A stretch of 64,000 bases of DNA, from positions 3,507,501 through 3,571,500 of the forward strand of contig NZ_CP012602.1 in assembly GCF_001278805.1 (NCBI RefSeq), in the 5' to 3' direction. The translations under genes were made by a program, and so were the position numbers. Below are positions 2,927 through 63,230 of this stretch, piece by piece. Under the pieces are notes generated by a model that did not search any database, was not told the origin of the DNA, and saw only the letters and a list, made by a program, of their open reading frames with translations. The number at the start of each line of letters is the position of its first letter. Position 1 is the first letter of the stretch. Origin of the DNA: Bacillus sp. FJAT-18017 (lineage in GTDB: Bacteria > Bacillota > Bacilli > Bacillales > Cytobacillaceae).

Positions 2927-3942
2927 TTATTATCTCCCCCTTCATAATACACCCAGCGTTTTCCAATTTTCATATTTAAGACAGTCAAAACCATTACGAT
3001 GATAAACAACAGCCATGCCATTGCCGATGCATACCCCATATCAAACAATTCAAATGCATTGTTCCACATATGAAGATTGTAAAATAACAGTGAGTTTGCA
3101 GGTCTTCCACTGCCTTCTTCACTCATGACATAGGCTTCCTGGAATATTTGGAATGCCCCTATTGTACTAGTAATCACATCGAAAAAGATGATAGGGGAAA
3201 TCATAGGAAGGGTAATATTGTAGAACTTCTGTAAGCCCGTTGCCCCTTCTATATCTGCTGCTTCGTACATTTCTTTTGAAACTCCCTGGAGACTTGCGAG
3301 ATATAAGAGCATCCCGCCGCCTACACTCCACAGTTTCATCAAGATTAATCCTGGCTTTGTCCACTCTGGGTCAAAAAGCCAGGCGGGACCATCGATACCA
3401 AACCAGCCAAGGAATGTATTGACAAGGCCTGTCGAAGGGCTAAGCAGCTGCATCCATAAGAAATAAACCGCCACACCCGAAAGTATTGCGGGAAGATAAT
3501 AAATCGTCCTGAATATTTTCATTCCAAGTATCTTTTGGTTTAACAACAATGCAATCAAAATTGCCCCTACAGTCGTAAGCGGCACTGAAAAAGCAACATA
3601 ATAGAGAGTGTTCCATAGCGATGTCCAAAACAAATTGTCGATAGTGAACATCCGAACGAAATTATCCATTCCAATAAAATTCATCTTAGATGTAATATTA
3701 TAATCCGTGAAGCTGGCAGCAAGTGAAAACAGCAGTGGTCCCGCTGTCAGGCATATAAATCCTATAATCCAGGGACTGATGAACAAATAGCCCCAAATAT
3801 TTTCTTTAAACTCCCGAGTTATCTTTTTGTTTGGAGTTTTCATATCCGCAGCTGCGCTTGGAGTTTTACTCTTTTTCGCAGATACGCTGCTTACCCCTGA
3901 CTCTTCCGGGAGTGCTACTTCTGCAGATTGAGCTGATTTCAT
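2923..3942 (-). CDS. Carbohydrate ABC transporter permease, MalF type
   Basis: A 339-residue membrane protein. A hydrophilic N-terminus of about 45 residues (Ser/Ala/Lys-rich) is followed by about six membrane segments. The EAA loop is 'EAADIEGATGLQKFYNITLP'. It is the MalF/UgpA-type partner of the downstream permease and receives substrate from the binding lipoprotein encoded upstream. The start is supported by an AAGGGGG site 6 bases before the ATG. It is co-transcribed with the neighbours on both sides, and its stop codon overlaps the start of the next gene. Confidence 0.9.
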   Translation of the reverse strand: MKSAQSAEVALPEESGVSSVSAKKSKTPSAAADMKTPNKKITREFKENIWGYLFISPWIIGFICLTAGPLLFSLAASFTDYNITSKMNFIGMDNFVRMFTIDNLFWTSLWNTLYYVAFSVPLTTVGAILIALLLNQKILGMKIFRTIYYLPAILSGVAVYFLWMQLLSPSTGLVNTFLGWFGIDGPAWLFDPEWTKPGLILMKLWSVGGGMLLYLASLQGVSKEMYEAADIEGATGLQKFYNITLPMISPIIFFDVITSTIGAFQIFQEAYVMSEEGSGRPANSLLFYNLHMWNNAFELFDMGYASAMAWLLFIIVMVLTVLNMKIGKRWVYYEGGDNK

Positions 3943-51694: not shown

Positions 51695-53107
51695 TTAACC
51701 CCATAGCCTGATCAGGCGGTTTTCGGTGATGATTGACAAAGGTTTCGCACTGAGCGTCCCTGCCGTGTGGTCATGATAAAATCGGACAAGAACAGCCTGG
51801 TCTCTCAAATCTTCCTCAGGTAAAAGTCCGAGCAACGGCAATGTTGGCCTCTCTTCTTCAGGTTTGTCAGCAAGGCTTAACCTGTTACCGTAGCGGTCCT
51901 CAAGCTGCCATTCGCCTTCAGCCTGGCCGATTTTTTTGAAAGAAAGCAGTGCAACTGGCTGCTTATCTGATAGTGGCATCCTCAGGATATTCCTAATTTC
52001 CTTCAGAACCTCTGAAACGTTTTCTTTGGCATATTCTTTTATTTTTAAATAATGGGGCGTCTGTTCAAGTTTGTAATCCTCCCAGCGGACCCTTCGATTG
52101 CCCTCACCGGGATACATGTATAATTCGTTTGTGGTAAGCAGCTCCATGACCGAATTTTCTTCTTTAATGTGCTTTAGCGCTTTAAATGGACGGTAGTTTT
52201 TTGTAAAAAACAATTCCCCAGTATCCATATCCAGCCAAATTCCCTGGTCGACATATTCTCCTCGTGCATCATTCTTTATGGAAAAAAATGATAGCTGGGC
52301 AAGTTTGGCGTTTTGTTTTACAAGGCCATACTCCTTCAGTTCCGCTAGCTGCCAGGTGTGCCCTAGCCACTCCTCGATCGTCGACTCAGTATCAGGCAAA
52401 AGTGATTCATCCTGTAGGCGTTTTTCAAGATGCTGGCGCCCTTTTTTGCACACAGCATGCAATACGAGCAGCTTTTCAAAGGCAAATTGAAATAGTTTCT
52501 CCTCTGTAAGCCCTTTTTTCCATAAAAGTGTAAAGCCTCTCAGCTCATTCTGCGCTTCCTTCAAGTAATGGTTTCCAAGCAGTTTCGCTGTTTCGTCAAG
52601 TTGCCTTAGCTTTTTTGGGTCAATCGACGCAAGCCCTGCTGTAAGGAGCTGGCTGATTTGTTTTTCAAGGATTCCAAGTCCTTCAAACTGTGAGTGCAGC
52701 TTTTTTGAGAGAGCTGACTTATTAACCTTCCGCGGCGCTTTCTGCTGCTCTTTCTTCTTCTCCTCGCGCACTAAAGCCTTGGAGCGCTTGGTAATAATAT
52801 CTTCAGGAATGGGCGCCTCTGTAAAAGGCGCACCATTTATGTATGCATACAAAAGTGCAAGAGAGTGTTTGCATGGAAATTGGCGGCTCGGGCAGCTGCA
52901 GCGAAAAACAGGCTCACCATTTATAAAATCGGCCGATGTGAAATACGGATTCTTGCCGCTGCCTTTGCATTCCCCAAAAACAAGAGTGCCGTCACTGCTA
53001 ATATGCAGATTTTGGAGCTGATTTTTCCTTACCAGTCCCCAGCCATTCTTTACCGCGGCAGCATTTGGTGCAAATGAATCAACATACGCTTCCGTTAGTG
53101 CTTGCAT
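51695..53107 (-). CDS. SWIM zinc-finger protein (YehQ-like), first gene of the MoxR-VWA operon
   Basis: 470 residues. A SWIM finger C-x-C-x6-C-x-H spans residues 70-81 ('CSCPSRQFPCKH'), preceded by 'GECKGSGKNPYFTSADFI'. The rest is helical with a Lys-rich segment (about 110-140). SWIM domains bind DNA or protein. In E. coli YehQ is the SWIM protein beside YehL, YehM and YehP. AGAGGTGGGG precedes the ATG. It heads the operon; no clear promoter motif is read. Confidence 0.8.
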   Translation of the reverse strand: MQALTEAYVDSFAPNAAAVKNGWGLVRKNQLQNLHISSDGTLVFGECKGSGKNPYFTSADFINGEPVFRCSCPSRQFPCKHSLALLYAYINGAPFTEAPIPEDIITKRSKALVREEKKKEQQKAPRKVNKSALSKKLHSQFEGLGILEKQISQLLTAGLASIDPKKLRQLDETAKLLGNHYLKEAQNELRGFTLLWKKGLTEEKLFQFAFEKLLVLHAVCKKGRQHLEKRLQDESLLPDTESTIEEWLGHTWQLAELKEYGLVKQNAKLAQLSFFSIKNDARGEYVDQGIWLDMDTGELFFTKNYRPFKALKHIKEENSVMELLTTNELYMYPGEGNRRVRWEDYKLEQTPHYLKIKEYAKENVSEVLKEIRNILRMPLSDKQPVALLSFKKIGQAEGEWQLEDRYGNRLSLADKPEEERPTLPLLGLLPEEDLRDQAVLVRFYHDHTAGTLSAKPLSIITENRLIRLWG

Positions 53108-53308
53108 TTCCCCACCTCTTAAAAATCAGATTCAGTCTGAAATTTCAGACATAATTATTTTACCATCATATAACCTCAGGTGGAGGAGAAATATTGCAAA
53201 ATGTAGAAGGGATTAAAGGCTGGTCAGATTGATAGAATAGTAAACGTGTGTAACATGACCTTGGCACGGGTAAACGTTTAGGAAGACTAGAAAGGGAGGA
53301 AATTTTCA

Positions 53309-53446
53309 ATGAGTTCAAAATTAGTTAAATTCCTTTTGGGAGGAACCCTCATATCAGCGTTGTTTAGTTTCGTGATTCTGGTCATGACAGTGGTCCATCA
53401 TTTTAAAATTAAAAATCTTGTCAAGGCGACAGCGCATACTGAATAA
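53309..53446 (+). CDS. Small single-span membrane protein
   Basis: 45 residues. One hydrophobic segment at about 8-29 ('LLGGTLISALFSFVILVMTV') and a basic, His-containing tail 'HHFKIKNLVKATAHTE'. AAAGGGAGG precedes the ATG by 8 bases. No family is recognised. It may be a small peptide acting in the membrane. It lies upstream of an oxidoreductase gene but 59 bases away. Confidence 0.55.
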   Translation: MSSKLVKFLLGGTLISALFSFVILVMTVVHHFKIKNLVKATAHTE

Positions 53447-53505
53447 TAGAACTGCTATTCTAATAACTGTAGAATAAGAGGAAAATAGAAAGGCAGGAAG
53501 TGCCA

Positions 53506-54459
53506 GTGGCAAAGATTAAGGTCGGCATCATTGGAGTGGGCGGGATTGGTGAGCGTGTACTCACTCAATTCCAAGCCCATCCTGAAATCGAGGTAAGAGG
53601 CATTTTTGACACGAACAATAGCAGGCTTCAAGAAATTTCTGCAGGCTTTTCAATCACTGCAGCCGGGCATTACAGGGAACTGCTTGACGATCCGGCCATC
53701 AATTTAATTTATATAGCAGTTCCACCGAAATTTCACAACCAATTTGTACTCGAGGCCCTCGAGTATGGAAAAAATGTCCTATGTGAAAAACCGCTTGCAA
53801 GCACGGTTGCTGAGGCAGCTGAAATGCTTCATGCCGCTGAAGCAAAAGGCCTGCTGCACGCTGTCAACTTTCCTTCCGTTTTCGCTCCCGGCTTTATTGA
53901 ACTGGAAAGACTGGTCAACCAGGGTTTCCTAGGTGCGCTGCGCCGAATTGAACTTCACTGCCATTTTCAGGAATGGCCAAGATACTGGCAAAAAAACAGC
54001 TGGATTTCGTCCCGTGAACAAGGTGGGTTTGTCAGGGAAGTGTTTCCCCATTTTATCCAGATGATTCAGCAGCTGTTCGGAGATATATGTGACGTTACAG
54101 CCTCACTCGAACTCCCGAAAGACCCGGATTTGTGCGAAACTGGCATTATAGCCAGCGGACGCATGGCGAACGGAATTCCTATTCTGCTAAATGGCCTCAC
54201 CGGTATCGGGATGAAAGAGAAACTTCGTTTTGATCTGTACGGCTCAGAAGGCACCCTTTCTCTATTGAATTGGTCAGAACTATGGGCTTCAAGAATAAAT
54301 GAACCTCAAACAAAACTCGAAGTGGCAGGCTCAGGCCATTATTCCGCTTTTATGGACGAGCTTGTTCAAGCATTTGATGCAAAATCCTCCAGGCTTGTTA
54401 CATTCAAGCAGGGCTATGAAGTCCAAAAAGTGCTTGATACACTGTTAAATAAAAGTTGA
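53506..54459 (+). CDS. Gfo/Idh/MocA-family NAD(P)-dependent oxidoreductase
   Basis: 317 residues. N-terminal Rossmann fold 'VGIIGVGGIGERVLTQF' with 'IYIAVPPKFHNQFVLEALEY' and the catalytic 'GKNVLCEKPLAST' (EKP motif with Lys). The C-terminal alpha/beta domain is typical. It likely oxidises or reduces a sugar or inositol-type substrate. GTG 53506 is preferred because AGGA lies 7 bases upstream; the earlier GTG at 53500 overlaps that site. Followed by a strong bidirectional terminator. Confidence 0.85.
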   Translation: MAKIKVGIIGVGGIGERVLTQFQAHPEIEVRGIFDTNNSRLQEISAGFSITAAGHYRELLDDPAINLIYIAVPPKFHNQFVLEALEYGKNVLCEKPLASTVAEAAEMLHAAEAKGLLHAVNFPSVFAPGFIELERLVNQGFLGALRRIELHCHFQEWPRYWQKNSWISSREQGGFVREVFPHFIQMIQQLFGDICDVTASLELPKDPDLCETGIIASGRMANGIPILLNGLTGIGMKEKLRFDLYGSEGTLSLLNWSELWASRINEPQTKLEVAGSGHYSAFMDELVQAFDAKSSRLVTFKQGYEVQKVLDTLLNKS

Positions 54460-54468
54460 AGAACAAGA

Positions 54469-54517
54469 GAGGCTGTCCCAAAAAAGTCGTTATTCAACGA
54501 CCTTTTGGACAGCCTCA
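54469..54517. terminator. Bidirectional intrinsic terminator
   Basis: Long hairpin with GAGGCTGTCC / GGACAGCCTC outer arms, an A/T-rich inner segment and GTCGTT / AACGAC at the tip. Confidence 0.85.
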
Positions 54518-54521
54518 TAAT

Positions 54522-54893
54522 TTATTCTAAGGTATCGAATTGGATGTACTCTAACACATTCCCAAAGGGGTCTCTAAAGCTAATATACCTTCCAGGGGGA
54601 CAATCTGCAGGCGTATCTACTACGAGTTCTACTTCTTTTTCTTTTAAAAGTTTAAGAGTTTCTTCTATATCTTCCGTCCTTAATGCTAACACTACTCCAG
54701 ATACATTAGTATCGCGAGTATATGCAGCACCTTCACTTTCCTCGAGGACAATTGGGATTTCCTCGTGCATAAGTGTCACAATCTTTGAACCGTAATGCTT
54801 GTTCAATTGGAACCCCAGCGTATTTGAATAAAAATCAACTGCCTTGTTCAAATCCGGCACATAAATGCCTATAACACAAACTTGGCTGCCCAT
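54522..54893 (-). CDS. VOC-family (glyoxalase-like) protein
   Basis: 123 residues, two beta-alpha-beta-beta-beta modules. 'VCVIGIYVPDLNKAVDFYSN' opens the first and 'PPGRYISFRDPFGNVLEYIQ' closes the second, with Glu in 'NVLEYI' as the usual metal ligand. Vicinal-oxygen-chelate proteins include glyoxalases, dioxygenases and antibiotic-binding proteins; the substrate is unknown. Confidence 0.85.
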   Translation of the reverse strand: MGSQVCVIGIYVPDLNKAVDFYSNTLGFQLNKHYGSKIVTLMHEEIPIVLEESEGAAYTRDTNVSGVVLALRTEDIEETLKLLKEKEVELVVDTPADCPPGRYISFRDPFGNVLEYIQFDTLE

Positions 54894-54980
54894 TTTTCCA
54901 TCTCCCTATTTATGGTATTTCTACTATTTCTATAATGGCTAAACAGTTTCCTCTTTCCTCCGAAAATTTTTTATATACTA

Positions 54981-55013
54981 AAAAATGCTTAGGAAATTGC
55001 CCTAAGCATTTTC
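54981..55013 (-). terminator. Intrinsic terminator of the P450 gene
   Basis: AAATGCTTAGG / CCTAAGCATTT 11-bp perfect stem. On the minus strand it is followed by TTTAGTATAT. Confidence 0.8.
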
Positions 55014-55067
55014 AAATTAATTAAATTAGAAGGACTTCCTCTTTTAAGGCATCAGCTTAATCCCGCC

Positions 55068-56324
55068 CTATCTTTTCCTCACATTAGTGATAATAAACCC
55101 ACTTTCCGGCCGTGACGGCATGCGCACAAGGCTGTAGCTCAAATCTTGTTCTTCGGGGACTTCGTACTGGATTTCATTAACTAGAAAATCGACAGCCACT
55201 TTCATAACTTCCACCGTCACACCCTCACCTGGACAGCGGTGGCCTCGGGCAGGATCCCCTCCACCTTGCGGAATAAACGAATAGAGATTTCCATCCCAGT
55301 CCCGGAATCGCTCAGGAAGGAAGTCTTTTGGGAATTCCCAAAGCCGGTAGTCATGATTCGTTCCATAAATATCAAGAAGAACAAGCTGCCCTTCGGTAAA
55401 ATGATAATTTTTCCAGGTAAAATCTTTTCGAGCCCTTGCACCAAGGAATGGCCCAAACGGGTAGAAGCGTCGTACTTCCTGAACAAACCATTCCCGATAT
55501 TGTTCACCATGGGCAGCCAGTTTATTTCTGCACTCCGGATGGTCGTGGATCGCAAGTGCACTGTAGGCAATAAAGGTTGAAATTGCAACGATTGGTCTAA
55601 GGATATTAATTAATTCGATAGCAGCCATTTTTGCATCAAGAGATTCTCCATCAGGGTCAAGATAGGCTGCCCATTCAGACAGAGCTGAGCCCTCTCGTGC
55701 CATCAGTTCTCCGTTTCGGACTTTCTCGATGACCTCGGTAATCCATACCTCACTGCGTTCCCTGGCCCTTCTGCCTTTCCAATGCCTTGGACCGACTGCA
55801 CCAAATGCATCAACCATGGCATTAAAGTCATTTGCCCGCTCCCTCGCTTCTTCATCCTTTAACGGAACCCCCGCCCATTCACAAGCAACCCTGCAAAGAA
55901 CTTCTGCGGATTCATCAAAAAGAATGACCCGCTCCATCCTCTCCCAACTTTCCGAGGCTTCTTTAAATCGTTTCCGGGCAAGCTGCCCAAGTTCCATGAC
56001 GCCTACAGGAGACAAAAGTGACATGAATAACCGTTTTCTGCTTTGATGGACTGCACCGTCCTTCGTTTGGATTGCATTCACACCAAACAACGACTTCTGA
56101 ATTCTCTTCGGTGCTGCTCCGTTTCTCTGAAAAAGTTCAGGATCATAAAAAACTTTCACTGCCTCTTCACCTGTTATGCAGACCGCCTTTTGGCCAAGAA
56201 TGCGCGCCTCGAACAAATCGGCTCCATATTGCTTCACGCGGTTTTGGATAAATTCATATCCTTCCTGCATCAAAGCGAGACTGTTATCGATACTTCTGTC
56301 TTTTGGGACTTCACTCACGTACAT
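55068..56324 (-). CDS. cypC: CYP152-family fatty-acid peroxygenase (P450-BSbeta-like)
   Basis: 418 residues, matching the CYP152 family in length and sequence, e.g. 'KSLFGVNAIQTKDGAVHQSR', 'VDAFGAVGPRHWKGRRAR' and 'FVQEVRRFYPFGPFLGA'. Haem-ligand Cys is in 'GHRCPGEGVTVEVM'. The family uses H2O2 instead of a redox partner to hydroxylate or decarboxylate fatty acids. The substrate-side residue equivalent to position 85 is Gln (Gln86 in 'NAIQ'), as in B. subtilis CypC (mainly alpha/beta-hydroxylation), not His as in the alkene-forming OleT. Confidence 0.93.
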   Translation of the reverse strand: MYVSEVPKDRSIDNSLALMQEGYEFIQNRVKQYGADLFEARILGQKAVCITGEEAVKVFYDPELFQRNGAAPKRIQKSLFGVNAIQTKDGAVHQSRKRLFMSLLSPVGVMELGQLARKRFKEASESWERMERVILFDESAEVLCRVACEWAGVPLKDEEARERANDFNAMVDAFGAVGPRHWKGRRARERSEVWITEVIEKVRNGELMAREGSALSEWAAYLDPDGESLDAKMAAIELINILRPIVAISTFIAYSALAIHDHPECRNKLAAHGEQYREWFVQEVRRFYPFGPFLGARARKDFTWKNYHFTEGQLVLLDIYGTNHDYRLWEFPKDFLPERFRDWDGNLYSFIPQGGGDPARGHRCPGEGVTVEVMKVAVDFLVNEIQYEVPEEQDLSYSLVRMPSRPESGFIITNVRKR

Positions 56325-56448
56325 TCACTCCTTTTAAGGAAAAACGAAATGTTTTTGCGTGTTCTCCATGACTACATAATTTCCATGACGGAACTGGTTT
56401 AAACCGAAGGCGATTTTCTGTTGCCATGATTTATTTACGTGCCCCCGA

Positions 56449-56535
56449 TTAAGTATTCAAGCAAGGAGTTAGGAAGCCCGTTTTTGCTGCTTGCCTTCGC
56501 AACAATTTACACCTTAGCGCGCCTTTTCGTGGCAA
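56449..56535 (-). CDS. Possible small basic peptide, unsure
   Basis: 28 codons from TTG, beginning MPRKGALRCKLLRRQ, preceded on the minus strand by GAGGAGGTG at suitable spacing. A terminator for the neighbouring gene lies upstream of it. The ribosome-binding site is strong but the ORF is short and unlike a known family. Confidence 0.25.
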   Translation of the reverse strand: MPRKGALRCKLLRRQAAKTGFLTPCLNT

Positions 56536-56571
56536 ACTTAACACCTCCTCTTTATGGTAAGTCACGCACGA

Positions 56572-56597
56572 AAAAAGACAGGGATGCTTCCCTGCCT
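56572..56597 (-). terminator. Intrinsic terminator of the DinB-family gene
   Basis: On the minus strand CAGGGA-AGCA-TCCCTG is followed by TCTTTTTT, shortly after the stop codon of the DinB-family gene. Confidence 0.85.
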
Positions 56598-56630
56598 CAA
56601 AGCACATTTTCTATGAATGCTAGCAAACTA

Positions 56631-57167
56631 TTACCACTGCGGAAATCCACCCGAACCGATATATCGCTGCATGATGATTTTGCGGTGATGAAGCTCATGT
56701 CCTGCAATAATTGAAACGAGAGCGCGTGCGGAAACTTTACTGCCGTTGGCCACTCCTTCACGTGTCCATACAGACGAATCCATCATGTTAACCAATGAAA
56801 GAGTTGCTGCCCTTACTGCCAAAAAATTGTCCAGCAGCTTAGAAAAAGGAATTTTGTCAAATCCGCCCTGCCTTACGTACTCATTTTCGTCGAAACCAGG
56901 CAAATCAACCATATCTCCTCGGGCAATGACCAGCAGCCGGTATGCCATAATCCGTTCAGTATCGGTAATGTGTCCGAGTACTTCCTTAATGCTCCACTTC
57001 CCTTTTCCATAGCGGAAATCTGCCTGTCTCTCGGATAGTCCCTTTAAAAGGATTTTCGTCTCTTCTGCCTGCCGCTCCAAAATAGTAACAAGGTCGCCTT
57101 GAGGAATCAAATCAATGTACGGTGCATAATAGGGGTTGTACTCCCCTGGTTCAGGACGACTGACCAT
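56631..57167 (-). CDS. DinB/YfiT-family putative metal-dependent enzyme
   Basis: 178 residues forming a four-helix bundle. Metal-ligand His residues are in 'VLGHITDTERIMAYRLL' and 'IIAGHELHHRKIIMQ'. The family includes mycothiol- and bacillithiol-dependent transferases (BstA, YfiT), so it may act in bacillithiol chemistry. 'KWSIKEVLGHITD' is a common marker. Substrate unknown. Confidence 0.85.
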   Translation of the reverse strand: MVSRPEPGEYNPYYAPYIDLIPQGDLVTILERQAEETKILLKGLSERQADFRYGKGKWSIKEVLGHITDTERIMAYRLLVIARGDMVDLPGFDENEYVRQGGFDKIPFSKLLDNFLAVRAATLSLVNMMDSSVWTREGVANGSKVSARALVSIIAGHELHHRKIIMQRYIGSGGFPQW

Positions 57168-57353
57168 ACTTATCCCACTCCCTCCGAATCGGAAAGTTTT
57201 CCTATTTTCACCTTATCACTTCTGCTAAAAAAGGAAAAGAAACCACGTATGACAAATTTCGAACTACAGTATTGTTTAATCATATCTTTCTAAGTAATTC
57301 TAAATACTAGCTGACTCTATTCTTAGAAGTTATCAATTCTCCCTTTTGTTAGA

Positions 57354-57384
57354 TATAATGATTAAAAACTATCCTCAAGGGTAA
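57354..57384 (+). promoter_or_regulatory. Candidate sigma-B promoter of the cobalamin/STAS operon
   Basis: GATTAA (57360-57365), a 13-base spacer and GGGTAA (57379-57384) match the sigma-B consensus GTTTAA-N12/15-GGGWAW at 11 of 12 positions. A TATAAT (57354-57359) just upstream could serve as a sigma-A -10 box, but no good -35 accompanies it. The operon starts 20 bases downstream. Confidence 0.5.
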
Positions 57385-57403
57385 AAGGCAAGGTGGGAGT
57401 TAT

Positions 57404-57709
57404 ATGTATTCAGTTTTTTCTACATTTGATGTTCCGGAGGATAAGGCAGATGAAGTCATTTCCATATACAGGAACCGCTCTCGTTTAGTCGACGGGGCAC
57501 CTGGGTTTGTCGATTTCTTACTATTACAAAATGACAAACGGCCTGGGGAGCTTACCGTTCAGCTTCTTTTTAAAACAAAAGAGCACTACATGGACTGGAT
57601 TACTGGCAGTGACTTCAAACGAATTCATGATATGGAAAAGAACTATCCTGACCAGGAACTTGCCGGAATTATTCCTACTGTACGCCAATTTAAGGTGGTG
57701 GCAAAATGA
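57404..57709 (+). CDS. ABM-domain (antibiotic biosynthesis monooxygenase-like) protein
   Basis: 101 residues with the ferredoxin-like beta-alpha-beta layout: 'MYSVFSTFDVPEDKADEVIS' then 'LVDGAPGFVDFLLLQND' and 'LTVQLLFKTKEHYMDWI'. Members include HmoA-type haem-degrading enzymes and small monooxygenases; the Asn-Trp-His haem triad of IsdG proteins is not obvious here. It is first in a four-gene operon, overlapping the next gene by ATGA. The site GGTGGGAG precedes the ATG. Confidence 0.75.
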   Translation: MYSVFSTFDVPEDKADEVISIYRNRSRLVDGAPGFVDFLLLQNDKRPGELTVQLLFKTKEHYMDWITGSDFKRIHDMEKNYPDQELAGIIPTVRQFKVVAK

Positions 57710-58062
57710 CAACAATCTTCCTTGCTGAAGAACTTGCAACTAAAGTGACAGCGATTATTTATGAACGGGAACCCGGTTTGCTCGAACGGTTTGGTGAAAA
57801 AGGGAAAACAAAATGCTATGAAGACAATCTTCACCATTTGAATCACCTGAAAACAGCCTTTGATTTACAGGATATTGCTGTATTCACCGATTATACAAAG
57901 TGGCTTAATGGAATTTTGATAAAACATGGCATGGAGAGCAAGCATCTTATAGATAACTTCGCAATCATTCGTGATGTTTTAAAAGATTATAAGGATAGTG
58001 ATTCAAAGCGTCTGGATTTCTATCAAACTGCGCTGAAAGCCGGAATAAATTCGATAGCATGA
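57706..58062 (+). CDS. Helical protein of the cobalamin/STAS operon, unknown
   Basis: 118 residues, mostly alpha-helical with several conserved-looking charged/aromatic positions: 'LERFGEKGKTKCYEDNLHHL', 'FTDYTKWLNGILIKHGMESK'. No catalytic motif is recognised. The pattern (R-F-G-x-x-G, C-x-x-D-N-x-x-H-L) recalls helical modules found N-terminal to cobalamin domains, and its size would suit a non-haem globin-like sensor, but neither is verified. It overlaps the previous gene by ATGA and is 33 bases before the B12 domain gene, so it works in the same operon. Confidence 0.65.
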   Translation: MTTIFLAEELATKVTAIIYEREPGLLERFGEKGKTKCYEDNLHHLNHLKTAFDLQDIAVFTDYTKWLNGILIKHGMESKHLIDNFAIIRDVLKDYKDSDSKRLDFYQTALKAGINSIA

Positions 58063-58095
58063 ATAATAGACGTATAGGTGAAACGAGGTGTCTGT

Positions 58096-58749
58096 GTGAA
58101 GGATACAGAAATTCAGGAATATGTTAACTATCTACTCGATGGTAACGAACGGCTAGCAATACAATTTCTTGAACGCAATCAATTTAGATCAAAAAAGGAA
58201 ATTTTTGAGGAAATCATTACCCCGGCTATGCAACATATTGGCCAGCTCTGGGAAATGAATAAAATTACCGTTGCGGACGAGCATCTTGCAACTGGTATAT
58301 GTGACTATCTTATTTCGAGGCTTTACCCTCCCGCTCAACAAGAGGAAACACCCAAAAGTAAAAAGGCGATGTTTTTTTGTGTTGAGGGAGAACGGCATTA
58401 TCTCGGTTTAAAAATGGCCAATCTTCTTTTTGAGGAATCCGGTTGGGAAACCAGGTATTATGGACCGGATCTGCCACTTGAATATGCGGTGGCAAAAGCA
58501 GAGAATTGGAAACCGGACGTTGTTGGTATTTCCGTTTCAATTGTATACAATCTACCAATAGTGAAGGACTACATAACGAGCCTTACCAGTCTTAAGCAGC
58601 CCCCGAAGGTATTAGTTGGCGGACGGATTGCCAGCAAATATCAAAGCTCTCTTTCACTAAGTAAAGTCGAAATTTTTGAAGGGTTGACCGAGCTCGAAAC
58701 CTGGCTGCGGTTGTATAGAACAGGAGGCCGGACAAATGTCTATCAATGA
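58096..58749 (+). CDS. Stand-alone cobalamin (B12)-binding protein, CarH-like sensor
   Basis: 217 residues. The first 80 are the helical B12-binding_2 cap and the rest a Rossmann-like B12-binding domain. The CarH/photoreceptor motif Trp-x9-Glu-His is present exactly: W52 ... E62 H63 ('QLWEMNKITVADEHLATG'). The lower-axial ligand motif is E-x-H-x-x-G at 99-104 (E instead of the usual D, His101). In CarH these residues bind adenosylcobalamin and make it light-sensitive. There is no DNA-binding or enzyme domain, so it likely signals to partners, probably the STAS protein encoded next. Start GTG 58096 has GAGGTG 5 bases upstream. Confidence 0.85.
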   Translation: MKDTEIQEYVNYLLDGNERLAIQFLERNQFRSKKEIFEEIITPAMQHIGQLWEMNKITVADEHLATGICDYLISRLYPPAQQEETPKSKKAMFFCVEGERHYLGLKMANLLFEESGWETRYYGPDLPLEYAVAKAENWKPDVVGISVSIVYNLPIVKDYITSLTSLKQPPKVLVGGRIASKYQSSLSLSKVEIFEGLTELETWLRLYRTGGRTNVYQ

Positions 58750-59512
58750 AAGAATTCTCCCTGTACCCTATTTTAAGTTTAATAAAGAAGCCGAAATTCT
58801 TAATTTTTCCGATGAAGCTCATATTCTGTTCGACCTCGACGGCAAACAATTTTATCAGTTAGTGGATGAGGACAGCCAAAACAAACTGTATACATTCATT
58901 TTTTCAAAAGAGAAAGCAGATGGAATAGAACTGAATATGAAAACGCGCAATAATCCATTGGTGCTCTTTAAGCTGAAGTCAAAATGGGATGCTGACGGGT
59001 TTTGCCATCTAATAGCTTTGCCTTCTAGTGAGGAAAACTTGGAGTTGGAGGCGAAACTTGATGCACTTCAGGAACGTCTTCTCCATACCGACTTCGAGTT
59101 ATTTGAGAAAAAAGAACAACTGATGGAAACTATGGCAAGGCTAAATCAGCTTTCAGGCCCGTTCATTCCCATTTCAGAGAATTTGGCATTTGTCCCCCTG
59201 TTTGGAGATCTGACCGGGGAGAAAATTGCAGCCATTATGGACCACACCGTTCGGAATGTATATGAGGGTGATTTTGAAACAATCCTATTTGATTTCAATG
59301 GTACCGGAAATCTAACTCCTGATGGGGTAACAAGTCTGCTGGAGCTTTTTAAAATGCTTACCTACATGGGGCCTTCAGAAATTAAAGTGATTGGCCTTCA
59401 TCCACGACATGCAAACGAACTCAACAAGCTCGGTAACAATTGGCCTGTTGAATTCGAATCCTCACTGCAAAACGTTCTGAAGCAAAATTTCTCTGCTTAT
59501 AAAACGATTTAG
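58736..59512 (+). CDS. RsbR-like protein with C-terminal STAS domain
   Basis: 258 residues. An N-terminal PAS-like region (about 10-100), a coiled coil (about 100-140, 'ELEAKLDALQERLLHTDFE') and a C-terminal STAS domain (about 143-250) opening 'SGPFIPISENLAFVPLFGDL'. This coiled coil/STAS layout is that of RsbR stressosome paralogues and YtvA. At the position of the RsbR phospho-Thr in 'DxTG' there is Asn ('FDFNGTG'), so phosphorylation control may differ. It overlaps the B12 gene by 14 bases. AGGAGG lies just before the start. Confidence 0.8.
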   Translation: MSINERILPVPYFKFNKEAEILNFSDEAHILFDLDGKQFYQLVDEDSQNKLYTFIFSKEKADGIELNMKTRNNPLVLFKLKSKWDADGFCHLIALPSSEENLELEAKLDALQERLLHTDFELFEKKEQLMETMARLNQLSGPFIPISENLAFVPLFGDLTGEKIAAIMDHTVRNVYEGDFETILFDFNGTGNLTPDGVTSLLELFKMLTYMGPSEIKVIGLHPRHANELNKLGNNWPVEFESSLQNVLKQNFSAYKTI

Positions 59513-59524
59513 GAATGAAAATGT

Positions 59525-59562
59525 AAAGAGCTGCTCCGTTTATGGACGGGAGAAGCTCTTTT
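59525..59562. terminator. Bidirectional terminator between the STAS and HAD genes
   Basis: AAGAGCTGCTCCGT / ACGGGAGAAGCTCTT forms an imperfect stem followed by TTTT. Confidence 0.8.
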
Positions 59563-60214
59563 TGCTTTCAACTTCCATAATGACTTGGGAAAGGCTTTTT
59601 TCGGCCATCGACGACAATCTTAAATGATCCTCAGAAAATTGCAATGATGCTGTAACCGGATTTGGGACCACAACACAATGCATACCAGTTGTGCTTGCGG
59701 CAAGTGAGCCATTCAGCGAATCTTCAAATGCGATTGACTCTGAGGGCTGAATTCCTAAATCAATGAGTGCTTGTTGGTATAGAGCCGGATCCGGTTTTAC
59801 TTTTTCAACATCCTCCTTTGTTTTCATGACATCAAAATAATGATGAATCCTGAACTTTCTTAAGTATGCCATGATCCACTCCCTTCCCGAACTTGAAGCG
59901 AGGCCAATCTTTAAGCCAAGTCTTTTGGCTTCCTCCAAATAGTCACGAACACCCTCCCGTAATTCAAGGGCTCCTGCTTTTTCTTGAAACAGGGCATATG
60001 TTTTACCTTCAATGTCCACTTCAACAAAGGTTACTCCTGTGGTTTTTTCAAAAAATACATGCAGTGCCTCGTCAGTAGTGCCAATCACCTTCGAAAATTG
60101 TTCTAGCGTTAGCTCACATTGATAGTATCCCATTACTTCTTTATAAGCTTCAAACCAAAGTGACTCAGTATCAATTATCAACCCATCAAAGTCAAAGACT
60201 ATCCCCTTTATCAT
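59540..60214 (-). CDS. HAD-superfamily phosphatase (beta-phosphoglucomutase/YhcW-like)
   Basis: 224 residues. HAD motif I 'FDFDGLIIDTES' with nucleophile and acid Asp, motif II 'LASSSG', motif III 'KVKPDPALY' and motif IV 'IAFEDSLNG'. The cap is the helical type of beta-phosphoglucomutases and sugar phosphatases. The substrate is probably a sugar phosphate. The last 23 bases overlap the terminator of the convergent operon. Confidence 0.9.
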   Translation of the reverse strand: MIKGIVFDFDGLIIDTESLWFEAYKEVMGYYQCELTLEQFSKVIGTTDEALHVFFEKTTGVTFVEVDIEGKTYALFQEKAGALELREGVRDYLEEAKRLGLKIGLASSSGREWIMAYLRKFRIHHYFDVMKTKEDVEKVKPDPALYQQALIDLGIQPSESIAFEDSLNGSLAASTTGMHCVVVPNPVTASLQFSEDHLRLSSMAEKSLSQVIMEVESKKSFSRP

Positions 60215-60493
60215 TCCAATCCCCCATTTTGTTTTGTAACAAAGTACTATATCATTTTTGTAAGAAATCCTACTTTTTTATCTGCAAAATTACCTTAAAA
60301 ACCATTAAGACACATTTTTATCATATTTTTTCCATTCGGTTTTACAAAGATGAATCACCATAAAACTAGAATTCGCCAAGTCGAAACAAGTGGTAAAAAC
60401 CCATATACTACAAGGGATTCCACTCTTTTACACGAGAAATCTCCTTCATTCGATCAGGTATCTTGTCGAATTTTCAGAATTCTCATATTTTCT
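60215..60493. other. Intergenic stretch upstream of the WalR box
   Basis: About 280 AT-rich bases between divergent genes. I see no ORF with a ribosome-binding site; promoter elements for the HAD gene probably lie in its left part. Confidence 0.4.
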
Positions 60494-60549
60494 TGTAACA
60501 TACTTGTAACCTTCCTGTGATGACGTTGTTAAATTAATTCAAGTATAGT
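60494..60549 (+). promoter_or_regulatory. WalR box and promoter of the NlpC/P60 hydrolase
   Basis: TGTAAC-ATACT-TGTAAC (60494-60510) fits the WalR (YycF) consensus TGTWAH-N5-TGTWAH perfectly. A TATAGT -10 box follows at 60544-60549 with a weak -35, as in activated promoters. The box lies 35-50 bases upstream of that -10. Confidence 0.6.
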
Positions 60550-60583
60550 AGGTTTAGCAAATAACACCAGGGGGTAAACAACT

Positions 60584-61021
60584 ATGTTGAAGAAATTTAT
60601 GGCAATTCTTCTAATGACAACGATGCTGACTACTATCCTGCCGACGATGGGCGAAGCCGCCTACTACCACACGAAAGCTATTTCTGTTGCTAAAGCCAAT
60701 ATTGGAGTTAAATATAAATGGGGCGGAACTACCACAAGCGGATTTGATTGTTCCGGTCTAGTAAAATATTCTTTCGGTAAAGCAGGCAAATATTTGCCTC
60801 GTACTACTGGTGAGATGTGGACTAAGGGTAAAAGAGTTTACAGCCTTCAACCAGGTGATCTGTTATTCTACAAAACTACTTCCACAAGCAAAGTTTCTCA
60901 TGTTGGTATCTATCTTGGAAGCGGCAAGTTCATCCACTCCGCTTCATCCAAAGGCGTTTCAATTGCTTACCTGAGCAACTCATACTGGAAGCCACGCTAC
61001 GTAGGTGCAAAACGAATCTAA
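60584..61021 (+). CDS. Secreted NlpC/P60 cell-wall endopeptidase
   Basis: 145 residues. Signal peptide of about 25 residues ending 'GEAA'. The NlpC/P60 domain has the catalytic Cys in 'GFDCSGLVKYSF', His in 'VSHVGIYLG' and a third polar residue/His in 'KFIHSAS'. It cleaves the gamma-D-Glu-meso-DAP bond in the peptidoglycan stem peptide. It has no LysM or SH3 anchoring domain, so it is a minimal enzyme. A WalR box upstream fits the known WalR control of lytE and cwlO. Confidence 0.9.
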   Translation: MLKKFMAILLMTTMLTTILPTMGEAAYYHTKAISVAKANIGVKYKWGGTTTSGFDCSGLVKYSFGKAGKYLPRTTGEMWTKGKRVYSLQPGDLLFYKTTSTSKVSHVGIYLGSGKFIHSASSKGVSIAYLSNSYWKPRYVGAKRI

Positions 61022-61034
61022 TAGACTTACACCA

Positions 61035-61062
61035 AGAGGGCTGGACAAGCCCTCTTTTTTTA
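61035..61062 (+). terminator. Intrinsic terminator after the NlpC/P60 gene
   Basis: Perfect 8-bp stem AGAGGGCT / AGCCCTCT with a 5-base loop, then TTTTTTT. Confidence 0.9.
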
Positions 61063-61187
61063 TTTTATGGGTCTTTGTTAGTGAATTTAGCTGCGGAATG
61101 CCGGGAGACCTTTGAAGAATAATTCTAATATTTGTAAATAAAATATAGTTATTTTAAGAGAAGAAGATAACTTATCATTTAACCTCT

Positions 61188-61706
61188 CTATCAGATTAAT
61201 CGCGGCCTGGGAAAGGCGGTTTAATCCATTAGTCCCTTCTATTAGATTAATCAAGGGCTGGGTAAGGCAGATTAATCCATAAAAAACCCTCTATTAGATT
61301 AATCAAGGGCTGGGTAAGGAAGATTAATCTATTAGAGCCCTTCTATTAGATTAAACAGGGGCCGGGTAAGGAAGATTAATCCATTAGAGCCCTTCTATTA
61401 GATTAATCAGGTTCTGGGTAAGGAAGATTAATCCATTAGAGCCCTTCTATTAGATTAATCAATGGCTGGGTAAGGAAGATTAATCTATTAGAGCCCTTCT
61501 ATTAGATTAATCAAGGGCTGGGTAAGGAAGATTAATCTATTAGAGCCCTTCTATTAGATTAATCGAGGCCTGGGTAAGGAAGATTAATCTATTAGAGCCC
61601 TTCTATTAGATTAATCAAGGGCTGAGTAAGGCAGATTAATCCATTAGAGCCCTTCTATTAGGTTAATCGAGGCCTGGGTAAGGCAGATTAATCCATTAGA
61701 GCCATT
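61188..61706. repeat. Tandem array of ten 52-bp repeats
   Basis: A 52-base unit beginning CTATTAGATTAATC is repeated about ten times without gaps. Each unit has two copies of the perfect palindrome GATTAATC, so TAGATTAATC can pair with GATTAATCTA over a 17-base loop (GGGCTGGGTAAGG core). The central loop varies (AAGGGCTGGG, GAGGCCTGGG, GGTTCTGGG) while the arms are conserved. No ORF. Degenerate remnants continue to about 61745. Confidence 0.9.
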
Positions 61707-61889
61707 CTATTATTCTATTTGGATTAATAAATCCATTAGAACGTTCTATTTGATTTCAGCATCGCCCGCGGCAGTCCTCAAGTCCGCGTTCCCCTCAAAT
61801 TTCCCCGCGATGATTATTTTCGAGATTAGCTATCTGGAACGGAGATAGAATAGATTGTCTACTATTAATTAAAAAGAAATTGCAATCGA
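61707..61889. other. Stretch between the repeat array and the SAM-controlled operon
   Basis: Contains degenerate repeat remnants and no recognisable gene. Confidence 0.4.
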
Positions 61890-61918
61890 TTGACTTTACT
61901 GGCAATTTACACTATTAT
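61890..61918 (+). promoter_or_regulatory. Sigma-A promoter of the SAM-riboswitch operon
   Basis: TTGACT, 17-base spacer, TATTAT. Start of transcription is expected near 61925, just before the riboswitch. Confidence 0.7.
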
Positions 61919-61947
61919 CACTTTATCAAACTAAAACTTTATATGAT

Positions 61948-62097
61948 TTCTCTATCAAGAGAGACGGAGGGAAAGGCCCGATGATGTCTCGGCAACAGGT
62001 CCATCAAGGATACTGTGCTAAGTCCTGCAAACAAATTGTTTGGAAGATGGGGAGTAGCGTGAAACCTTACTCTCTTCTTTTGTGAAGAGATTTTTTT
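61948..62097 (+). ncRNA. SAM-I (S-box) riboswitch with terminator
   Basis: The aptamer begins with CTATCAAGAGAG followed by GGAGGGA, GGCCCGATGATGTCTCGGCA and TGCTAAGTCCTGCA, all S-box consensus parts. P1 closes with a GATGGGGA segment near 62046-62053. A terminator TCTCTTC / GAAGAGA followed by seven T (62071-62097) is the expression platform. SAM binding stops transcription, so the downstream monooxygenase operon is made when SAM (sulphur) is low. Confidence 0.93.
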
Positions 62098-62168
62098 ATT
62101 TTTGTAAGCAAACCGACTAAGTCGGTTGGTTTAATAGACTTAAAGTACCTACAAGGAGTTGGACAGCA

Positions 62169-63230
62169 ATGAAATATGGATTTTGGCTGCCTATATTTGG
62201 CGGGTGGCTCCGCAATGTAGATAACGAGAATATGCCCCCGACTTTTGACTATGCAAAACAGGTTGTTCAGTCTGCCGAACAATGGGGATATTCAACAACT
62301 TTGATCGCCGAGCTATACTTGAACGATATAAAAGGACCAGAACAGGATGCTCTTGAAGCATGGACAACAGCTGCTGCTTTGGCAGCCGTTACCGAGAAAA
62401 TTGAAATTATGACAGCAGTCCGCCCGGGTTTCCATAATCCCGCAGTAACCGCAAAAATGGCTGCCAACATCGACCAGCTCAGCAACGGCCGTTTTACCTT
62501 AAATGTTGTTTCTGCTTGGTGGGAAGAGGAAGCGCGCCAATACGGCGGTATTTTTACAGAACATGATGAACGTTACGAGCGGACAACTGAATTTATCGAT
62601 GTATTGAAGGGCCTCTGGAGTGAGGACAGCTTCTCTTATGAAGGTAAGTTCTATCAACTCAAGGACACCAAGCTTTTCCCTAAGCCAGTACAGCGTCCAA
62701 ATCCTATTCTTTACGCCGGCGGGGAGAGCCCTAAAGGAAAACAGACTATCGTTGAAAAATGTGATGCCTATGTTATGCATGGCGGAACAGTTGAAGAAAT
62801 TTCAACTAAAATCGGAGATATGAAATCCAGACGCATGGCTGCGGGAAAAGAAGAGCTCTCCGAATTTGGAATGGCTGCATATGTGATTTGCCGGGATACC
62901 GAAGAAGAAGCATTTGCTGAGCTAGCACGGATCACGGATGTAAAAGAATCCAGCGCCTATGCAGGATTCAAAGATTTTACAAGCAAATCACAGCTTGAAC
63001 AGCAAATTCAGCTGCAGGATTATTCTGTCTCAAACCGCGGCTTGCGTCCAAATCTTGTCGGGACCCCGGATCAAATTGCCGAACGGATCCTACAATACGA
63101 AGAGGCTGGACTTGGATTGCTTTTGCTGCAATTCTCTCCTCAGCTAGAGGAAATGGAACGCTTTGCGAGTCAGGTTATGCCCCTTGTTGAAGAAAAACGC
63201 AAACAATTAACTGGAGGTATTGTCCAATGA
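62169..63230 (+). CDS. LLM-class flavin-dependent monooxygenase (SsuD/SfnG-like)
   Basis: 353 residues forming the bacterial luciferase-like TIM barrel. Closest blocks are those of dimethylsulfone/alkanesulfonate monooxygenases: 'IDQLSNGRFTLNVVSAWW', 'HDERYERTTEFIDVLKGLW', 'KPVQRPNPILYAGGESPKGK' and 'GTPDQIAERILQYEEAGLGL'. With reduced FMN it oxidises a C-S compound to release sulfite. SAM-riboswitch control fits a sulphur-scavenging role. The precise substrate is unknown. AAGGAG precedes the ATG. The stop codon overlaps the start of the next gene. Confidence 0.85.
   Translation: MKYGFWLPIFGGWLRNVDNENMPPTFDYAKQVVQSAEQWGYSTTLIAELYLNDIKGPEQDALEAWTTAAALAAVTEKIEIMTAVRPGFHNPAVTAKMAANIDQLSNGRFTLNVVSAWWEEEARQYGGIFTEHDERYERTTEFIDVLKGLWSEDSFSYEGKFYQLKDTKLFPKPVQRPNPILYAGGESPKGKQTIVEKCDAYVMHGGTVEEISTKIGDMKSRRMAAGKEELSEFGMAAYVICRDTEEEAFAELARITDVKESSAYAGFKDFTSKSQLEQQIQLQDYSVSNRGLRPNLVGTPDQIAERILQYEEAGLGLLLLQFSPQLEEMERFASQVMPLVEEKRKQLTGGIVQ

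What the first reader, a model, noticed from the sequence alone, without database searches (positions are those of the whole stretch)
57354..59512. Cobalamin sensor plus RsbR-like STAS operon: a possible B12/light-responsive stress module
Four genes are tightly linked: two ATG overlaps or near-overlaps and one 33-base gap. They encode an ABM protein, a 118-residue helical protein, a stand-alone B12-binding protein and an RsbR-like PAS/coiled-coil/STAS protein. The B12 protein has Trp-x9-Glu-His and E-x-H-x-x-G, as in the light-sensing CarH family, but no DNA-binding domain. A candidate sigma-B promoter stands 20 bases upstream. Seen directly: motifs, overlaps, promoter match. Known: CarH uses adenosylcobalamin as light sensor; RsbR/YtvA STAS proteins feed the sigma-B stressosome. 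Inferred: this operon passes a cobalamin or light signal into sigma-B or a related partner-switching pathway.
Basis: partly seen in the sequence, partly recalled or inferred. Interest (0 to 1): 0.75.

Follow-up and report, generated by a model that had tools for sequence, protein, structure and literature searches.

The report
Split bilin-and-B12 light sensor operon
Four linked genes in a Bacillus-type bacterium look like a two-pigment light sensor, a bile-pigment protein of the phycobilisome type plus a vitamin B12 protein, wired to a stress-signalling protein, which could let these bacteria feel green or red light.

Summary
The four genes are real and conserved as a linked set in the window's order (Bacillales by named relatives). 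Its model (pLDDT 92.8) matches phycobiliproteins and the globin half of photocobilins, and it keeps photocobilin's bilin-contacting Asp and Trp and phycocyanin's bilin Cys. In other Bacillota the same globin and B12 domains are fused in one protein in the same order, once with the ABM gene just upstream. The operon is best read as a photocobilin split into two proteins, with an ABM (IsdG/HmuQ-like) protein that may supply the bilin and a PAS-STAS output that is a PAS-kinase in some relatives. Globin and B12 genes co-occur (both 52, one alone 3 + 3, neither 135, of 193 genomes). The genome has a complete rsbRSTUVW-sigB set. Against: the sigma-B promoter match is not enriched in relatives, STAS lacks RsbR's phospho-threonines, ABM lacks IsdG's catalytic Asn, and 12 of 46 loci have ABM-globin without B12 nearby. 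Light, bilin and stressosome functions are untested.

The parts
57404..57709 (+). ABM-domain protein, 101 aa, IsdG/HmuQ-like; candidate heme-to-bilin enzyme. Ser6 stands at the IsdG/MhuD Asn position; Trp65 and His75 kept
57706..58062 (+). Stand-alone phycobilisome/photoglobin-type globin, 118 aa, five helices
   Evidence: AF2; fold searches; profile v PDB; PF00502 over cut-off in two relatives
57814..57825 (+). C37-Y-E-D40: the position of the phycocyanin bilin Cys (C-x-R-D) and of photocobilin Asp270
57901..57903 (+). Trp66 codon; aligns with photocobilin Trp296, which touches bilin and corrin; Trp in 55 of 55 rows
58078..58749 (+). B12-binding protein (start 58078 or 58096), no DNA-binding domain found
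58111..58320 (+). B12 helical (cap) domain with Trp58 (58249-58251) and Glu68-His69 (58279-58284)
58363..58650 (+). B12 Rossmann domain with Glu105-x-His107 (58390-58398) and Gly129-x3-Pro133 (58462-58476)
58736..59512 (+). PAS-helix-STAS protein, 258 aa, YtvA/RsbR-like output
58754..59026 (+). PAS fold (residues 7-97), no LOV cysteine motif
59150..59503 (+). STAS domain (residues 139-256); Gly and Pro at the two RsbR phospho-Thr positions
57354..57384 (+). Promoter strings: TATAAT 57354-57359 and GGGTAA 57379-57384 (sigma-B-like); neither shown to work

Best explanation
The operon encodes a photocobilin taken apart into separate proteins, plus a candidate chromophore enzyme and a signalling output. 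(1) The ABM protein opens heme to a linear bilin (inferred). (2) The 118-aa globin binds that bilin through Asp40, and perhaps covalently through Cys37 in the Cys-bearing members (inferred from fold and residues). (3) The B12 protein holds adenosylcobalamin with His107 as lower ligand and Trp58, Glu68-His69 at the adenosyl group (inferred from the signature). (4) Globin and B12 protein dock so that Trp66 lies between bilin and corrin, as in fused photocobilins. Green light breaks the Co-C bond; the bilin extends the range to red. (5) The changed B12 protein acts on the PAS domain of the next protein, and the helices pass the change to STAS (in some other genomes to a HisKA kinase). (6) STAS enters or modulates the stressosome and raises sigma-B activity, without needing phosphorylation of its own. 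Shown here: linkage, predicted folds, residues, co-occurrence, fusions. Steps 1-6 as chemistry and signalling are inferred.
Against: No chromophore, light or interaction data. The ABM protein has Ser at the Asn that is critical in IsdG (Ser6 in 70 of 72 rows) and Tyr for Trp in 8 of 72; three other ABM genes in the genome could serve instead. 12 of 46 loci hold ABM-globin without B12 nearby (one more only the globin), and one of those genomes (G279) has no strong B12 protein, so the globin is not always tied to B12; 4 of the 33 loci with B12 show no PAS gene. STAS lacks both phospho-Thr positions. The sigma-B promoter is not conserved. The second rsbST pair near the operon in one genus also stands where the operon is absent (L122). 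The PAS-STAS model is only fair (pLDDT 77.9, pTM 0.44). Sequence and Foldseek E-values linking the globin to bilin proteins are modest (about 1e-3 and 1e-2), and the window's own globin does not pass PF00502.
Confidence: 0.62

Rival explanations
1. Heme or gas sensor: the globin carries heme (perhaps handed over by the ABM protein) and reports heme, O2 or NO to the B12-PAS proteins; light plays no part.
For: ABM enzymes of the IsdG kind bind heme by a His, and His75 is in 72 of 72 rows; globin His44 is in 55 of 55; heme-PAS FixL structures appear among the fold hits of the PAS-STAS model.
Against: Bilin proteins, not heme globins, fill the top of the fold lists: methaemoglobin is rank 19 with TMq 0.50 and another heme globin rank 47 with 0.55, against 0.66-0.81 for the phycobiliprotein rows (the two ApcE rows, however, are 0.55-0.57). 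The bilin-site Asp and Trp are conserved, and the globin is fused to a B12 domain nearest photocobilin.
Confidence: 0.15
2. Cobalamin-status or redox sensor: the B12 protein reports AdoCbl level, and globin and ABM serve heme/tetrapyrrole turnover; any light response is incidental.
For: The genome has a cobalamin adenosyltransferase; B12 proteins can in principle sense the cofactor itself (general knowledge).
Against: The signature is the one proposed for light-responsive domains and checked on exemplar proteins (GxxW, EH, GxxH, GxxxP; PMC11796333, passages); Trp, Glu, His, His are in 75 of 75, although the Gly of GxxH is in only 39. No cobalamin riboswitch in 53000-62500.
Confidence: 0.13
3. 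The sensory pair is B12 plus PAS only; ABM-globin is a separate heme-breakdown or antenna pair that shares the promoter.
For: ABM-globin without B12 nearby in 12 of 46 loci; B12 with a 371-373 aa kinase-type neighbour but no globin in G187 and G190, and B12 without globin in G049.
Against: Close co-occurrence even when unlinked and the fused globin-B12 proteins.
Confidence: 0.1

Closest known systems
Photocobilins (SasPcob, AbDPcob; PMC10979010, passages and section 9 seen)
   Same: AdoCbl domain and bilin globin of the same kinds; Asp270/Trp296 and Trp61/Glu71-His72 equivalents; the B12 protein's best PDB hits include 8j2x/8j2w (51.7 bits v CarH 44)
   Different: Two separate proteins; Cys37 present in many members, where photocobilins lack the bilin Cys; ABM partner; PAS-STAS or PAS-kinase output
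BBAG-2 globin / B12 protein / pre-PcyA clusters and related Myxococcales globins (PMC10151467, passages seen)
   Same: Stand-alone biliverdin-specific globin next to a stand-alone B12 protein, linked to bilin synthesis
   Different: Uses heme oxygenase and a bilin reductase; no PAS/STAS output mentioned in the passages seen ('STAS' 0 occurrences)
CarH / LitR
   Same: AdoCbl light-sensing signature
   Different: No DNA-binding domain here; Glu follows the Trp (in 16 of 16 aligned), where CarH has its light-state His (recalled)
YtvA and RsbR co-antagonists
   Same: PAS/LOV or globin input, helical linker, STAS output; YtvA is best Foldseek hit
   Different: No LOV Cys motif; no RsbR phospho-Thr; chromophores proposed on partner proteins
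IsdG/MhuD/HmuQ heme-degrading ABM proteins
   Same: ABM domain, heme His and mostly Trp
   Different: Ser for the catalytic Asn; overlaps a bilin-type globin gene

Membership tests
Photocobilin | B12 domain with the light signature (Trp, Glu-His, His) | tested here: met
   75 of 75 B12 rows (74 distinct)
Photocobilin | Bilin-type globin domain with Asp270 and Trp296 equivalents | tested here: met
   Asp40 54/55, Trp66 55/55
Photocobilin | Both domains in one polypeptide | tested here: not met
   Two genes here; fused in 7 of 7 distant Bacillota loci examined. It may work like a photocobilin but is not a fused one
Photocobilin | Binds AdoCbl and biliverdin, responds to green and red light | not testable with these tools
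   needs purified protein
Phycobilisome (PF00502) globins | Match to the Pfam model over its cut-off | tested here: inconclusive
   Two relatives pass (26.7 and 25.5 v 22.2 bits); the window's own protein and two other relatives tested do not
Phycobilisome (PF00502) globins | Phycobiliprotein fold | tested here: met
   predicted model
Phycobilisome (PF00502) globins | Chromophore Cys of the C-x-R-D motif | tested here: met
   Cys37 in the window (C-x-E-D); family rows Cys 36, Thr 18, Ala 1 of 55
CarH | N-terminal MerR-type DNA-binding domain | tested here: not met
   only B12-binding domains over cut-off
RsbR co-antagonist | STAS with phosphorylatable Thr171/Thr205 | tested here: not met
   Gly and Pro at those columns
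RsbR co-antagonist | Genome encodes RsbS-RsbT-sigB | tested here: met
YtvA | LOV domain with flavin-binding Cys motif | tested here: not met
   no GxNCR(F/Y)L string, single Cys90
IsdG-type heme oxygenase | Asn-Trp-His catalytic triad | tested here: not met
   Ser6 70/72, Trp65 64/72, His75 72/72
IsdG-type heme oxygenase | Degrades heme to a bilin | not testable with these tools
   enzyme assay needed

The most novel reading that the evidence does not exclude
Many Bacillales carry a self-sufficient two-colour photoreceptor assembled in trans: a non-canonical (Asn-less) ABM enzyme makes the bilin, a stand-alone phycobilisome-type globin carries it and docks on an AdoCbl protein, and the pair drives exchangeable PAS outputs, among them a STAS protein that gives the Gram-positive stressosome a bilin/B12 (red/green) light input.
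Probability: 0.35. Interest if true: 0.85.

Novelty: new variant of a known kind. Interest (0 to 1): 0.72.

Why it matters
A phycobilisome-type globin is found in 161 of 397 genomes searched in the window's order, and in the lists of relatives it is mostly named hypothetical. If it works as proposed it is a bilin photoreceptor in non-phototrophic Gram-positives, with a possibly new bilin-forming enzyme and a modular output. Red light is reported to activate sigma-B in B. subtilis and Listeria, with no receptor unambiguously identified (PMC3019169, abstract and passages); the operon offers a testable red/green input in its own hosts. Whether B. subtilis or Listeria carry it was not tested. A natural two-protein split could also be of use for optogenetics.

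Tried and rejected
Sigma-B promoter as evidence: rejected after scoring 70 upstream regions against mononucleotide shuffles (8 of the 46 order loci were not used there). CarH membership: rejected, no DNA-binding domain. Canonical heme oxygenase as bilin source: none in the own genome or in any of 193 family genomes; the control genomes ring in 3 of 14. Cobalamin riboswitch: none in 53000-62500, only a SAM riboswitch. Second RsbS gene in genus g14: on the same contig within about 6-13 kb of the globin in 15 of 17 globin-positive genomes, two of them with a broken globin; next to rsbT in the five loci read, L118-L122. Kept as weak support only, because L122 has the pair without the operon. RsbR-type phospho-signalling: rejected at residue level; PMC3944199 (passages) reports stressosome signalling without T171 and S59 phosphorylation. 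Own paralogue L008 was wrongly cut and is not used. Literature: no paper joining these elements in searches (the single papers listed in 56 and 57 are on other subjects; the two in 79 are the known photocobilin and phycobiliprotein papers; only PMC papers with CC0/CC BY/CC BY-SA are searched). The 2022 photoglobin paper, known to me from citing text and recall, is not held, so Bacillales cases may already be in it.

Full report
What is there. Four overlapping or nearly overlapping + strand genes at 57404-59512: an ABM protein, a 118-aa protein without a Pfam match over cut-off, a B12 protein with helical and Rossmann domains, and a protein modelled as PAS, long helices and STAS (mean pLDDT 77.9, pTM 0.44; best Foldseek hit YtvA, 1e-10). 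The window lies in a 5.27 Mb single-contig genome.

Bilin-site residues. In SasPcob Asp270 contacts three pyrrole rings, and Trp296 touches bilin ring D and hydrogen-bonds the corrin; in the weak biliverdin binder AbDPcob the Asp is His (PMC10979010, passages). In the alignment the only Asp and Trp 26 residues apart in the SasPcob stretch pair with globin Asp40 and Trp66, and the AbDPcob row has His at the Asp column. In 55 rows Asp40 is kept in 54 and Trp66 in 55; Cys37, at the phycocyanin Cys of KCxxD, is Cys in 36, Thr in 18, Ala in 1. Phycobiliproteins have a C-x-R-D and photoglobins a C-x-Q-D motif (PMC10151467, passages); the window has C-Y-E-D.

The B12 protein. Its best PDB sequence hits are the cobalamin-binding protein 8jbs (52.8 bits) and photocobilins 8j2x/8j2w (51.7), then CarH (44). 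The published light signature is GxxW, EH, GxxH, GxxxP (PMC11796333, passages). In 75 B12 rows (74 distinct) Gly55, Trp58, Glu68, His69 and His107 are in all 75; Glu105 in 73, Gly129 in 71, Pro133 in 74; the Gly of GxxH in only 39.

Conservation in the family. B12 relatives occur in 57 of 193 genomes and the globin in 55 of 193. With the 55 stronger B12 genomes (G094 and G124, at 60 and 64 bits, left out), 52 genomes have both, 3 B12 only, 3 globin only and 135 neither (Fisher p about 1e-39, not corrected for kinship). Two of the globin-only cases (G082, G085) are broken fragments, and one (G019, same genus) is a remnant with a stop between the same flanking genes as in the window. In the 33 loci first examined (the window's own included) ABM-globin-B12-STAS stand together in this order in 29, one of them (L029) with a broken ABM frame; L009 has B12, PAS-kinase, ABM, globin; L031 and L033 lack the globin at that place (their genomes have it beside a B12-kinase pair elsewhere, L050, L051); L011 has B12 and a kinase-type gene only. 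Pfam confirms HisKA and HATPase in L009, L050 and L054 (in L054 HisKA is just under its cut-off). In seven family loci the globin is divergent from B12 plus a ~200-aa relative of the PAS-STAS protein; the two of these that I tested have no Pfam domain.

Conservation in the order and phylum. In the order, 161 of 397 genomes (52 of 136 genera) have the globin. I fetched 46 loci from 45 of the 48 positive genera outside the family: an ABM match lies directly beside the globin in 43 (in L091, L094 and L101 it looks broken or partial), B12 in 33, and a PAS protein of this family in 29 of those 33 (25 STAS, 4 kinase); 12 have ABM-globin alone and one only the globin. Of these 13 genomes, 12 have a strong B12 protein elsewhere (E 4.6e-57 or better); G279 does not. 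Those 12 B12 genes all adjoin a PAS-domain gene of this family: 7 STAS, 1 kinase, 4 PAS alone.

Fusions. A phylum search found the globin in 14 of 398 genomes; 11 lie outside the order, and in 10 of these it sits in open frames of 359-378 aa. The seven held as loci are each globin (residues about 12-129) followed by B12 (about 142-321) in one protein; ABM is directly upstream in L145, and a kinase-type gene follows in five. The B12 part of the one tested is nearest photocobilin SasPcob (96.6 bits). Gene order in the operon equals domain order in the fusion. This is the strongest evidence that globin and B12 protein act together.

The ABM protein. PF03992 over cut-off; HmuQ and heme-oxygenase NCBIfam models match below cut-off. 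IsdG needs Asn7, Trp67 and His77 (PMC6018153, passages). Here His75 is kept in 72 of 72 rows and Trp65 in 64 (Tyr in 8), while Ser stands for Asn in 70. Either the chemistry differs or the protein is a heme or bilin carrier. PF01126 heme oxygenase is found in 0 of 193 family genomes; three other ABM genes exist in the own genome.

Output. The genome has rsbR, S, T, U, V, W and sigB in order and 22 PF01740 STAS matches, the operon's own STAS not among them. All 55 globin genomes have RsbS, but so do 61 genomes without the B12 protein. The operon's STAS has Gly and Pro at the two columns that are Thr in the own RsbR; six relatives have Ala, Glu, Asp or Gln at the first and varied residues at the second, Thr in one (L030). 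YtvA is a positive regulator of the B. subtilis stressosome, and stressosome signalling can proceed without the T171 and S59 phosphorylations (PMC3944199, passages). A stressosome route is plausible but unproven, and the kinase versions show that the sensor is not bound to it.

Judgement. Closest known kind: photocobilin, with the separate globin and B12 protein of BBAG-2 clusters. Not seen in what I could read: the split form across Bacillales, the ABM partner, and the PAS-STAS/PAS-kinase outputs. Photoglobin-B12 pairing itself is published, so I rate it a new variant of a known kind.

Noticed in passing
window 61949-62053 (+): SAM riboswitch (RF00162, 87.1 bits) just upstream of an ORF at 62169-63230 that looks like an LLM-class flavin monooxygenase (by eye, not searched).
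   Followed up: no
window 55068-56324 (-): Cytochrome P450 (PF00067) near a DinB-family gene and a glyoxalase-like ORF; the same neighbours stand in L057, where the light operon is gone.
   Followed up: partly
L057 (G019, same genus) about 3617-3922: Remnant of the globin gene between the same flanking genes, with the other three operon genes not found: loss within the genus.
   Followed up: partly
L118-L122 (genus g14): A second rsbS-rsbT pair plus a 153-174 aa STAS-type protein lie about 6-9 kb from the operon in L118-L121; the pair is also in L122, where the operon is absent.
   Followed up: partly
G000 whole genome: 13 of the 22 STAS matches sit in open frames of 264-300 aa (RsbR size, rsbR itself included), more than the handful recalled for B. 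subtilis.
   Followed up: no
L100, L110 (G356, G508): B12-ABM-globin order without a PAS protein found, and Asn for Glu105 in the B12 protein: a divergent sub-lineage.
   Followed up: no
L042, L043, L045-L049: Globin and B12 genes sit near a long gene; the one tested (L048) is a CheB-CheR-PAS-histidine kinase, a possible further output.
   Followed up: no
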